Positions 24,479 through 34,983 of a stretch of 64,000 nt of DNA are shown here, one piece after another. This DNA is from Pseudomonas sp. ERMR1:02 (GTDB taxonomy: Bacteria; Pseudomonadota; Gammaproteobacteria; Pseudomonadales; Pseudomonadaceae). The translations under genes were made by a program, and so were the position numbers. The first letter of the stretch is position 1, and the number at the start of each line of letters is the position of its first letter. The notes under the pieces are model-generated. The model ran no database searches. It had not been told where the DNA came from and saw nothing but the letters and a program-made list of their open reading frames with translations. The stretch covers positions 62,001-126,000 of the forward strand of contig NZ_NKJI01000009.1 in NCBI RefSeq assembly GCF_002277815.1, written 5' to 3'.

Positions 24479-24531
24479 AGCTGCCCGGTTCGGGCACTAT
24501 ATCGTCCTCAATCATGAGCCCGGATGAGGAT

Positions 24532-25604
24532 ATGAGCCGTTATCAACCACCACTGACCTTGACTACGAAAATGTTGTCGCTAATCGCTGAAATCAGCGAG
24601 CAGATCGGTCAGCTTACGGCTGTAGATGAGCGCCTGCAGACGCCTCAGTTACGTCGCGGTAATCGGATCCGAACGATTCAGGCTTCCTTGGCCATCGAGA
24701 ACAACACCCTCAGTATTGAACAGGTGACTGCAGTTCTGGCTGGGCAGCGAGTACTGGGGTTGCCTCGGGAAATCCAGGAAGTGCGTAATGCCTTTGCGGC
24801 CTACGACTCCATGCCGGATTGGCACCCGAGCAACCGCGCCGACTTGCTTCATGCCCATGAACTCTTGATGAGTGGATTGATTGACGATTGCGGGCGTTTT
24901 CGTCGAGCGGGTGGGGGTATCTACCGTGGCGATAAACTAGTCCATATGGCTCCACCTCCGAGTCGCGTTGTGCATTTGATTGAAGACTTGCTGGCATGGC
25001 TTGGCGATTCTGATTGGCATCCGCTGATCATCAGTTGCGTCTTCCATTACGAGTTCGAATTCATCCATCCCTTCGCCGACGGCAATGGACGCATGGGGCG
25101 TCTCTGGCAAACCCTCATACTTAGTCAGTGGCGACCAGTTTTGGCTTATTTGCCAGTCGAAGCAGTGATCCGAGAGCAGCAGGACGATTACTACGCGCAT
25201 TGTCAGCAGCGGATCAATTGGCTGAGTCGACACCTTTTGTCGAGTTCATGCTGCAAGCGTTGAGCATTGCGCTTAAAGAGGCAGTGCGAAGCGAACCTGT
25301 AACCGACCAAGTAACCGACCAAGTAACCGACCAAGTAACCGACCAAGTAACCGATCAAGTAACCGATCAAGTAACCGACCAAGTAGCGAAGCTGCTTTTG
25401 TCGCTCCGTGGAACCGGTCCAATGAAGGTAAGCGAGATGATGGTGGAGGTCGGATTAGCTCACAAGGCTACTTTTCGAGCTAACTATCTCAAGCCAGCAT
25501 TGGCTGCTGGCCTGATTGAAATGACCGATCCCGACTCGCCCCGCAGCCCGGTTCAACGCTATCTACTGACCGATTTTGGAAAGCAGGCGGTGGGCCGGTT
25601 GTAA
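24532..25604 (+). pseudogene. Fic-domain protein with VTDQ tandem repeat, frameshifted
   Basis: Fic proteins usually transfer AMP or another nucleotide moiety to target hydroxyls. The N-terminal frame has the inhibitory-helix-like segment QASLAIENNTLS and the full active-site motif HPFADGNGRMGRLW, with the catalytic histidine. The second frame gives LSAADQLAESTPFVEFMLQA, seven VTDQ repeats and a C-terminal winged-helix-like domain. One C is missing near 25194. Restored length is about 357 residues from the ATG at 24532; an ATG six codons earlier is also open. Both parts look intact, so a sequencing error is likely. Confidence 0.8.
25299..25382 (+). repeat. 12-bp coding tandem repeat, seven units
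   Basis: Seven direct copies of GTAACCGACCAA, two of them with one C-to-T change (GTAACCGATCAA). Each unit encodes VTDQ, so copy-number change stays in frame. It forms the linker between the Fic domain and the C-terminal helical domain. Confidence 0.95.
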
Positions 25605-27854: not shown

Positions 27855-29774
27855 ATGACCCTGCTCAAATTCAGCGATGTGTCCCTTGCTTTCGGCGCTA
27901 TGCCGTTGTTGGACAAGGTGTCCTGGCAGATCGCCCGTGGAGAGCGGGTGTGCATCATCGGCCGTAACGGCACTGGCAAGTCCAGCATGATGAAGCTCGT
28001 CAAGGGCGACCAGAAGCCCGATGACGGCTCCGTTTGGCGCGCACCCGGGCTCAAGATCGGCGAATTGCCGCAAGAATTGCCGGTAGCCGACGAGCGGACA
28101 GTGTTCGATGTCGTGGCCGAAGGCCTGGACGGTGTCGGTGCGTTGCTTGCCCAATACCACCACCTGAGCCAGAACATCGTTACCGATGCCGACCTGGACA
28201 AGCTGATGCATGTTCAGCACGACCTCGAAGCCCGCGATGGCTGGCGTTTGCAAACCCTGGTCGACAGCACCCTCAGCCGCTTGCAATTGCCGGCCGACAA
28301 GACCCTCGCCGAACTGTCCGGCGGCTGGCGTCGTCGCGTCCTGTTGGCCCAGGCACTGGTGTCCGAGCCAGATCTGCTGCTGCTCGACGAACCGACCAAC
28401 CACCTGGATATCGGTGCGATCGCCTGGCTCGAAGAAGCGCTGAAGGATTTCCAGGGCGCCGTGCTGTTTATCACGCACGACCGTTCCTTCCTGCAAAACC
28501 TGGCAACCCGCATCCTTGAACTGGATCGTGGTGGGCTGATCGACTGGAACGGCGACTACGCCAGTTTCCTGGTGCATAAAGAGGCCGAACTGGCCGCCGA
28601 AGCGACCGCGAACGCGCTGTTCGACAAGCGACTGGCCCAGGAAGAAGTGTGGATCCGCCAGGGCATCAAGGCCCGGCGTACCCGTAACGAAGGTCGCGTT
28701 CGCGCACTCAAGGCCCTGCGCGTCGAGCGCAGCGAGCGTCGTGAGCGCACCGGCAAGGCCAACATTCAGCTGGATACCGCCGACAAGTCCGGCAAGCAGG
28801 TGATGGTCCTCGAGAATGTGAGCTTCGCTCACCCGGGCGGGCCGTTCCTGATCAAGGACTTCTCCATGGTGTTGCAGCGCGGCGACCGTATCGGCCTGCT
28901 CGGCGCCAACGGCACCGGCAAGACCACGCTGCTGAAACTGATGCTCAGCGGCTTGCAGCCAACCAGCGGCAAGGTGGAAGAGGGCACGCGTATTGATGTC
29001 GCCTACTTTGACCAGTTGCGCCATCAGCTGGATCTGGAAAAAACCGTGATCGATAACGTCGCCGAAGGTCGCGACTTCATCGATATCGACGGCCAGAGCC
29101 GCCATGTGTTGAGCTACCTGGGCGACTTCCTGTTCAGCCCGCAGCGTGCCCGCACGCCGGTCAAGGCGCTGTCCGGTGGTGAGCGTGCCCGTCTGTTGCT
29201 GGCCAAGCTGTTCAGCAAACCGGCGAACCTGCTGGTCCTCGACGAACCGACCAACGACCTCGACGTCGAAACGCTCGAGCTGCTGGAAGAGGTCTTGCTG
29301 ACCTTCAACGGCACCGTGCTGATGGTTAGTCACGACCGGGCATTCCTCGACAACGTGGTCACCAGCACCTTGGTCTTCGAAGGCGAAGGCCAGGTTCGCG
29401 AATACGTCGGCGGTTACCAGGACTGGCTGCGTCAGGGCGGCTCGCCGCGCCTGCTGGGCGTGACCGAGAGCAAGTCCGGCAAGGCCGACCTGAACTCTGC
29501 TGTGGTCAAGGCAGAGCCTGCGCCTGTCGCGGCAGCCGTCGATGCGCCAGTGGCGAAGAAGAAACTCAGTTACAAATTGCAGCGCGAGCTGGAAGCATTG
29601 CCAGGGCAGATCGAAGCCATGGAGCAGCAGATCGTTGCGGTGGAAGCGCAGATGGCGGATGCCGGTTTCTACCTGCGTCCGGCTGCGGAGACCGCTGCGG
29701 TGATCGCTCAGCTGGCACAGTTGCAGGCTGAGCACGACGTGATGGTCGAGCGCTGGGCCGAACTGGATGCTTGA
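27855..29774 (+). CDS. uup: ABC-F ATPase Uup
   Basis: Soluble ribosome-associated ABC-F protein with two ATPase domains and no membrane part. 639 residues: first domain GRNGTGKSSM, LSGGWRRRV, LLLLDEPTNHLD; linker with many Arg and Glu residues; second domain GANGTGKTTLL, LSGGERARLLL, LLVLDEPTNDLD; then a C-terminal coiled coil (KKKLSYKLQRELEALPGQIE) that marks Uup among ABC-F proteins. The ATG after GGAGAAGCTC is preferred to the open frame nine codons earlier. Confidence 0.95.
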   Translation: MTLLKFSDVSLAFGAMPLLDKVSWQIARGERVCIIGRNGTGKSSMMKLVKGDQKPDDGSVWRAPGLKIGELPQELPVADERTVFDVVAEGLDGVGALLAQYHHLSQNIVTDADLDKLMHVQHDLEARDGWRLQTLVDSTLSRLQLPADKTLAELSGGWRRRVLLAQALVSEPDLLLLDEPTNHLDIGAIAWLEEALKDFQGAVLFITHDRSFLQNLATRILELDRGGLIDWNGDYASFLVHKEAELAAEATANALFDKRLAQEEVWIRQGIKARRTRNEGRVRALKALRVERSERRERTGKANIQLDTADKSGKQVMVLENVSFAHPGGPFLIKDFSMVLQRGDRIGLLGANGTGKTTLLKLMLSGLQPTSGKVEEGTRIDVAYFDQLRHQLDLEKTVIDNVAEGRDFIDIDGQSRHVLSYLGDFLFSPQRARTPVKALSGGERARLLLAKLFSKPANLLVLDEPTNDLDVETLELLEEVLLTFNGTVLMVSHDRAFLDNVVTSTLVFEGEGQVREYVGGYQDWLRQGGSPRLLGVTESKSGKADLNSAVVKAEPAPVAAAVDAPVAKKKLSYKLQRELEALPGQIEAMEQQIVAVEAQMADAGFYLRPAAETAAVIAQLAQLQAEHDVMVERWAELDA

Positions 29775-34932: not shown

Positions 34933-34983
34933 CCGGATTTATTTTTATTTTTATTTTGAAAAAATTTGAGTGAGGGCCAAAGC

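What the first reader, a model, noticed from the sequence alone, without database searches (positions are those of the whole stretch)
24532..25604. Fic protein with a seven-copy VTDQ tandem repeat linker
Seven 12-bp direct repeats (two with the same C-to-T change) join a canonical Fic domain to a C-terminal helical domain. Units are a multiple of three, so slippage would change linker length without loss of frame. Such a linker could tune how the domains meet. The near-identity of units suggests recent expansion.
Basis: partly seen in the sequence, partly recalled or inferred. Interest (0 to 1): 0.5.

Follow-up and report, generated by a model that had tools for sequence, protein, structure and literature searches.

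The report
Fic enzyme with frozen-codon tetrapeptide repeats
A bacterial Fic enzyme gene carries seven copies of a four-amino-acid repeat just before its DNA-binding-like tail; the copy number drifts between species, and oddly the DNA letters that do not change the protein are the ones best preserved.

Summary
The seven 12-bp units are real (25299-25382; two share a C-to-T change). They join a class II Fic domain to a winged-helix domain (Pfam Fic-like_C). In this assembly the frame breaks upstream of the array; intact relatives exist. Tetrapeptide stems are usual in this family; seven is the most among the Pseudomonas copies counted (otherwise 0-5), and a distant relative has 12. Two sister copies 2.7% apart differ by one perfect unit; variation between strains could not be tested. 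AlphaFold fuses the last units to helix 1 of the C-domain. That is the architecture published for Rpn and HsdS repeats, where unit number sets partner matching or spacing; I infer a similar role. Unexpected: in Pseudomonas the stem's synonymous positions are the most frozen of the gene (last-unit Val GTA 47/47, Gln CAA 31/31), while residue 4 changes among Q/P/L/S with third base A kept (83/88 distinct units). Eleven close pairs show 2 synonymous against 15 replacement codon differences in the stem, 277 against 83 upstream. This points to a DNA- or RNA-level constraint of unknown purpose. Against a universal rule: other lineages use other units, Val is less frozen outside Pseudomonas, and the longest array uses CAG in 9 of 13 units.

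The parts
24514..25263 (+). ORF of the Fic part in its own frame (249 aa); the start matching relatives is the ATG at 24532; the frame leaves the family sequence at about 25195-25203
24685..24702 (+). SLAIEN, fits the class II inhibitory motif (S/T)xxxE(G/N) (motif recalled, not from a call)
   Evidence: sequence
25066..25092 (+). Fic catalytic motif HPFADGNGR
   Evidence: sequence; Fic profile match
25195..25203 (+). approximate place of the frame break
   Evidence: comparison with intact relatives
25299..25382 (+). seven 12-bp units coding VTDQ
25377..25571 (+). Fic-like_C (PF21247) domain, winged-helix fold; Pfam match residues 84-148 of the second frame
25128..25604 (+). second open frame (158 aa): end of the Fic fold in part, repeats and C-domain

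Best explanation
A class II Fic protein (predicted self-inhibited adenylyltransferase) with a C-terminal winged-helix domain. The VTDQ units form a tetrapeptide-repeat stem: the last two or three extend helix 1 of the winged-helix domain, further units lengthen a less ordered hinge to the Fic part. Each gained or lost 12-bp unit adds or removes about one helical turn without loss of frame, and residues 2 and 4 of the units change quickly, so stem length and surface diversify between species. By analogy with Rpn and HsdS this probably sets how the C-domain pairs with itself or a partner and how far the Fic part stands from it. Shown: anatomy, change of unit number between species, fast amino-acid change with frozen synonymous sites. 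Predicted: the helix. Inferred: pairing, and any effect on Fic activity. In this genome the joined protein is probably not made, if the frame break is real.
For: Fic and Fic-like_C profiles; nearest structure 4RGL for both pieces, with its own short TDHVGDQVTDQV stem; family-wide tetrapeptide units; D52, D56, D60 nearly invariant and V62 invariant in 34 aligned sequences; sister copies differing by one unit; helix through the last units in both models; winged-helix fold of the C-domain; replacement excess in the stem. Analogues in print: Rpn (PMC10327210, passages) and HsdS TAEL (PMC3874165, passages).
Against: No experiment. Units 1-4 are low-confidence coil in the model of the window piece and its helical units have pLDDT near 60, so a plain flexible linker is not excluded. 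11 of 65 readable Pseudomonas copies lack the stem and C-domain altogether, so the part is dispensable. Frozen synonymous sites are not explained by a purely protein-level model. The window's own gene is frame-broken.
Confidence: 0.5

Rival explanations
1. The units are also, or mainly, a nucleic-acid element: a short site of about AGTAASCGAYCN repeated every 12 bp and kept as DNA or mRNA, for example bound by the protein's own winged helix or another factor, or used as a joint for recombination of the C-terminal domain.
For: Synonymous freeze in Pseudomonas and in part outside it (Gln CAA 18 of 19; the three most frozen of 200 columns are stem Gln columns); 2 synonymous against 15 replacement differences in close pairs; single-unit copies keep the same codons (L414, L418, L419, L423); Bacteroidales units SNQK share AGTAACC in another frame, with AGT 20 of 20; AGTAACC or complement 79 times in 7.5 kb of Pseudomonas stems, 0 in 38 kb upstream, and 53 times in 8.55 kb against 1 in 42.5 kb in 57 other loci.
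Against: No such array in promoters: 48 tandem hits in the gene, 1 outside, in 76 loci; single units not enriched in the own genome (8 outside the array, 15 for the reversed control). Other lineages use unrelated units; AGTNACC is in 6 of 21 further stems. L147/L463 uses CAG in 9 of 13 units. Val GTA falls to 11 of 17 outside Pseudomonas. No binding partner known.
Confidence: 0.3
2. Neutral slippage in a plain flexible linker, here expanded to seven because the gene is already broken and free of selection.
For: The window copy is frame-broken and has the highest count among the Pseudomonas copies counted; other copies are truncated or broken too.
Against: An intact distant copy has 12 VTDQ units; residues D and V of the units are conserved across phyla; the synonymous freeze is not neutral.
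Confidence: 0.25
3. Rpn-like gene within a gene: the C-domain is also translated alone from an internal start and restrains the full-length Fic, with unit number setting the match.
For: Units begin about 12-17 residues after a nearly invariant Met (M17 of A2), against 8-20 after the internal start in Rpn. The second frame of the window is open.
Against: That Met lies in the last Fic helix and may be kept for packing. No clear ribosome-binding site by eye; no systematic test was made.
Confidence: 0.1

Closest known systems
4RGL, Fic family protein Dde_2494 (Desulfovibrio desulfuricans G20)
   Same: Fic part (E 5.2e-100) and C-domain (E 4.5e-25) both match; short tetrapeptide stem TDHVGDQVTDQV; first Foldseek hit
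   Different: much shorter stem; intact gene
Rpn nucleases (RpnL/RpnS)
   Same: four-residue repeats of variable number at the start of helix 1 of a C-terminal HTH-like domain (PMC10327210, passages)
   Different: PD-(D/E)XK nuclease, not Fic; variation shown within species and pairing by experiment, neither shown here
HsdS of EcoR124I/II, TAEL repeats
   Same: 12-bp units that add about one helical turn and shift domain spacing (PMC3874165, passages)
   Different: DNA-specificity subunit of a type I restriction enzyme; the repeat joins two recognition domains
SoFic
   Same: Fic fold; PADLOC SoFic profile 152 bits for the intact relative L146 and 125 bits for the window piece
   Different: 45.5 bits against the NCBIfam equivalog cut-off of 550
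HATPase_c_4 proteins with tetrapeptide repeats before their tails
   Same: exact four-residue repeats late in the protein in 6 of 29 readable loci
   Different: other enzyme part, quite different units (VPVN, SRLE/SQPE, TTQK, GEKL, TTGK, PGKT)

Membership tests
Fic family (PF02661) | profile over the gathering score and HPFx(D/E)GN(G/K)R motif | tested here: met
   75.2 bits, cut-off 24; HPFADGNGR
Class II Fic | N-terminal inhibitory motif (S/T)xxxE(G/N) (recalled) | tested here: met
   SLAIEN at 24685-24702 (sequence)
Fic with Fic-like_C (PF21247) | C-domain profile over the gathering score | tested here: met
   85.5 bits, cut-off 27, on the second frame
SoFic equivalog (NCBIfam NF046030) | score over the curated cut-off | tested here: not met
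   45.5 bits on the first piece, cut-off 550
Fic adenylyltransferase | transfer of AMP to a target | not testable with these tools
   needs an enzyme assay
Rpn | PD-(D/E)XK nuclease domain | tested here: not met
   the only Pfam match over its cut-off on the first piece is Fic
Rpn | separate translation of the C-terminal domain | not testable with these tools
   needs ribosome profiling or immunoblot
Rpn | repeat number varies among strains of one species | not testable with these tools
   collections hold one genome per species; variation between species is shown
HsdS | two target-recognition domains | tested here: not met
   no such Pfam match on either piece

The most novel reading that the evidence does not exclude
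The tetrapeptide stem of this Fic family is a nucleic-acid site first and a peptide second: a 12-bp-periodic element whose wobble positions are under stronger constraint than its encoded residues, so that codon 4 moves among Gln, Pro, Leu and Ser while its third base stays A. Similar units in unrelated phage genes (VTDQ, VTEQ, VTPQ, with Thr codon ACC in 12 of 12, 4 of 8 and 29 of 29 low-GC contexts) and in another reading frame in Bacteroidales would be the same element used elsewhere.
Probability: 0.25. Interest if true: 0.75.

Novelty: new variant of a known kind. Interest (0 to 1): 0.5.

Why it matters
Tetrapeptide-repeat stems are known as length rulers or pairing codes in HsdS and Rpn. 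Finding them through a Fic family, and in 6 of 29 HATPase_c_4 proteins, suggests a general, evolvable part of bacterial proteins with HTH-like tails. Frozen synonymous sites beside changing residues reverse the usual pattern of coding evolution and can be tested by simple recoding; if confirmed they would reveal a nucleic-acid function hidden inside a protein linker.

Tried and rejected
Promoter operator for the C-domain: not supported (1 tandem hit outside the gene against 48 inside, 76 loci). Dispersed genomic signal: not supported. Strain comparison in E. coli: a Klebsiella relative without VTDQ units found no DNA match in that collection, which excludes only near DNA relatives. AGTNACC as a universal motif: weakened (6 of 21) and by HATPase_c_4 units. 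Avoidance of Shine-Dalgarno-like or start-like codons, hidden stops, Rho sites and mRNA structure were weighed by reasoning only; each explains one codon choice at most. In viral arrays CAA is hardly above background (low-GC: 12 against 10.2, 29 against 24.1 expected) and GTA in VTPQ is below it (7 of 60, 16.4 expected), so only ACC supports a DNA-level rule there.

Rows dropped and weak points: 4 of 69 loci had no readable Fic motif, of 30 loci 3 were left out beforehand (own genome, two Pseudomonas), 2 were unreadable, 4 were duplicates, 21 remain (L481 probably misread), L448 unreadable and L370 not counted because it was fetched by its repeat. Unit regexes accept related units (AADP, STDQ), so counts are approximate. 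The sequences in the codon test were chosen by a peptide pattern of the unit. My first 'outside' set held several Pseudomonas-named contigs; one search repeats it without them and a Stutzerimonas, and the report uses that. Distances to the window came out wrong and are not used. De-duplication of viral contexts differs.

Full report
Observation. The array is real: TRF reports 25299-25385, period 12, 7.2 copies, 97% matches, score 160. The seven units fill 25299-25382; units 5 and 6 share a GAC-to-GAT change. A doubled degenerate form, two mismatches allowed, is found at one other place in the 6.7-Mb genome, with one mismatch. The Fic part is read in ORF 24514-25263, the repeats with the C-domain in ORF 25128-25604; the frame changes at about 25195-25203, where intact relatives run on. 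So intact copies exist elsewhere and this copy, as assembled, is broken upstream of the array. Mutation and assembly error cannot be told apart here.

What the gene is. Piece 1 matches Pfam Fic (75.2 bits, cut-off 24), piece 2 Fic-like_C (85.5 bits, cut-off 27). HPFADGNGR and an upstream SLAIEN (fits the class II inhibitory motif, recalled) are present. The nearest solved structure for both pieces is 4RGL, Fic family protein Dde_2494. PADLOC's SoFic profile matches, but the NCBIfam SoFic cut-off is not reached. A gene of this type was found in 71 of 398 genomes of the genus, own genome included. Of 24 related loci tested by motif (L034-L057), 12 carry an ABC-transporter signature on the gene's strand and 11 of these also the transglycosylase signature on the other strand, as in the window; there it is a resident chromosomal gene. 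Elsewhere it can sit beside type I restriction genes: 13 of 80 loci have a tblastn match to HsdM, HsdS or HsdR within the held flanks, several of them weak; an Azotobacter plasmid has a relative with another tail between hsdS and a nuclease gene followed by hsdR.

The stem in relatives. Of 69 Pseudomonas-genus loci, 65 were readable. In 62 entries the counted units are 0:16, 1:5, 2:13, 3:21, 4:5, 5:1 and 7:1, the last being the window, entered by hand. Eleven of the 65 end at the stem, with no C-domain sign in another frame by my pattern. L395 and L396 are 2.7% apart in the Fic part and differ by one perfect unit; L006 and L007, 3.9% apart, have two and three. A distant relative, L147 (same stretch as L463), has 12 VTDQ units after one STDQ. 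Unit number thus changes between species, and seven is high but not unique. Variation between strains could not be tested.

Structure. AlphaFold of the intact relative L037 (33 sequences, mean pLDDT 87.6) has a helix 260-276 that takes in its last two units and runs into the C-domain; residues 256-264 are under 50. For the window's own C piece (34 sequences, mean pLDDT 78.0) units 5-7 belong to helix 50-69, with block means near 50-60 in the units, and units 1-4 are low-confidence coil. Foldseek finds 4RGL first (E 9.8e-7), then MarR-family proteins and the winged-helix centromere protein AspA (5k5q_B: E 5.7e-3, rmsd 2.3, 71 columns).

The unexpected part: frozen synonymous sites. In 47 Pseudomonas-genus sequences (chosen by a peptide pattern of the unit) the last unit reads GTA in 47 of 47, ACC in 37 of 37 Thr, AGC in 9 of 9 Ser, CAA in 31 of 31 Gln, CCA in 11 of 12 Pro, and the next Val GTA in 46 of 47. 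Of 207 conserved degenerate columns one reaches a major-codon share of 1.00, and it is this Val column; the median is 0.53. Over 88 distinct units of 48 loci, Val is GTA in 63 of 66 (background in the same genes 0.15), Thr ACC in 69 of 70 (0.39), Gln CAA in 49 of 50 (0.27), position-4 Pro CCA in 22 of 23 (0.18), position-4 Leu CTA in 8 of 10 (0.03); the third base of codon 4 is A in 83 of 88. In 11 close pairs with equal stems the stem has 2 synonymous and 15 replacement codon differences, the upstream part 277 and 83; over all 308 equal-length pairs 211 and 905 against 30,291 and 13,652. Pairs share loci and are not independent. Slippage makes units alike within an array but, by a simple argument, should not freeze the sequence between species, so selection or a biased process on DNA or RNA is implied. 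Single-unit copies keep the same codons (L414, L418, L419, L423).

How far does it reach? In 20 sequences outside Pseudomonas and Stutzerimonas Gln is CAA in 18 of 19, Ser AGC in 11 of 13, Thr ACC in 6 of 7, but Val GTA only in 11 of 17; the three most frozen of 200 columns are Gln columns of the stem. Bacteroidales homologues have SNQK units written mostly AGTAACCARAAA: 20 of 20 distinct units from 12 loci use AGT (background 0.18 of 109 Ser codons) and 18 of 18 Asn use AAC (0.46); the 7-mer AGTAACC is shared with the Pseudomonas units in a different frame. AGTAACC or its complement occurs 79 times in 7.5 kb of Pseudomonas stems, 0 in 38 kb upstream and 0 in 7.7 kb downstream; in 57 other loci 53 times in 8.55 kb, 1 in 42.5 kb upstream, 3 in 8.4 kb downstream, all 3 in one locus. 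In 21 further loci AGTNACC is in 6 stems (9 copies in 3,780 bp against 2 in 14,910 bp upstream), while other lineages use other units (GISG, VETP, NAPV, TPQ); near-repeats of four residues are in 16 of 21. L147/L463 uses CAG in 9 of 13 units. The freeze is strong in Pseudomonas and partial beyond; it is not a universal law.

Similar units elsewhere. In viral contigs two tandem VTDQ units in any codons occur in 34 stretches (24 contexts), VTEQ in 68 (54 or 50 contexts), VTPQ in 119 (82 or 62 contexts; a looser pattern), against 4 (2 contexts) and 13 (6 contexts) for the permuted controls VTQD and VDTQ. Several contexts belong to one protein family, many look unrelated by eye. Of 136 contexts the VTxQ frame is the longest open frame of 100 codons or more in 99, another frame in 18, none in 19. 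In contigs under 36% GC the Thr codon is ACC in 12 of 12 VTDQ contexts (2.3 expected), 4 of 8 VTEQ (0.7) and 29 of 29 VTPQ (5.2); CAA is near expectation there. HATPase_c_4 proteins carry exact tetrapeptide repeats in 6 of 29 readable loci, with quite different units; L370, fetched by its pattern, has VTEQ units before a stretch that by eye resembles Fic-like_C (not tested, one search failed).

Mechanism. Best supported is a tetrapeptide-repeat stem extending helix 1 of a winged-helix domain, as in Rpn, where one extra repeat stops the short form from restraining the long form unless both carry it (PMC10327210, passages), and as in HsdS, where a 12-bp TAEL unit shifts domain spacing (PMC3874165, passages). 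Anatomy and variation are shown; pairing and control of adenylylation are inferred. The frozen codons ask for a second, nucleic-acid role whose partner I did not find; a promoter operator is not supported. Whether the C-domain is also made alone, as in Rpn, is open.

Print. In the held library no paper contains VTDQVTDQ, VTPQVTPQ, VTEQVTEQ or TPQVTPQV, TDQVTDQV, SDQVSDQV, TEQVTEQV, PQVTPQV. Word searches on Fic with tandem, tetrapeptide or four-residue repeats listed nothing on the point beyond the Rpn paper (listings only), nor did one on 12-bp repeats and codon usage (listing only). Most subscription papers are not held, so this is no proof of absence.

Noticed in passing
L123, L126, L159 (VTDQ), L232 (VTEQ), L269 (VTPQ): One phage protein family (glycosylase-like by recall, not by a call) carries tandem VTDQ, VTEQ or VTPQ units at the same place, HH...VPYKLSHKNHP: the unit type was exchanged as a whole.
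   Followed up: partly
L140-L145: Phage proteins with very long arrays mixing SDQV, RAQV, SAQV and HAQV units before a shared C-terminal domain.
   Followed up: no
L427: A HATPase_c_4 protein with a long run of SRLE/SRPE/SQPE units.
   Followed up: no
L025, L027, L029, L030, L033, L387-L391, L394: Pseudomonas copies whose Fic frame ends at the stem, without repeats or C-domain.
   Followed up: partly
L385 (Azotobacter plasmid), L053, L113: Fic genes of this family beside type I restriction genes.
   Followed up: partly
own genome C35:19660-19995 and C53:258271-258573 (L002, L003): Two further Fic-domain genes in the same genome.
   Followed up: no
window 29606-29653, 29682-29708, 34938-34957: Three weaker tandem repeats in the window.
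   Followed up: no
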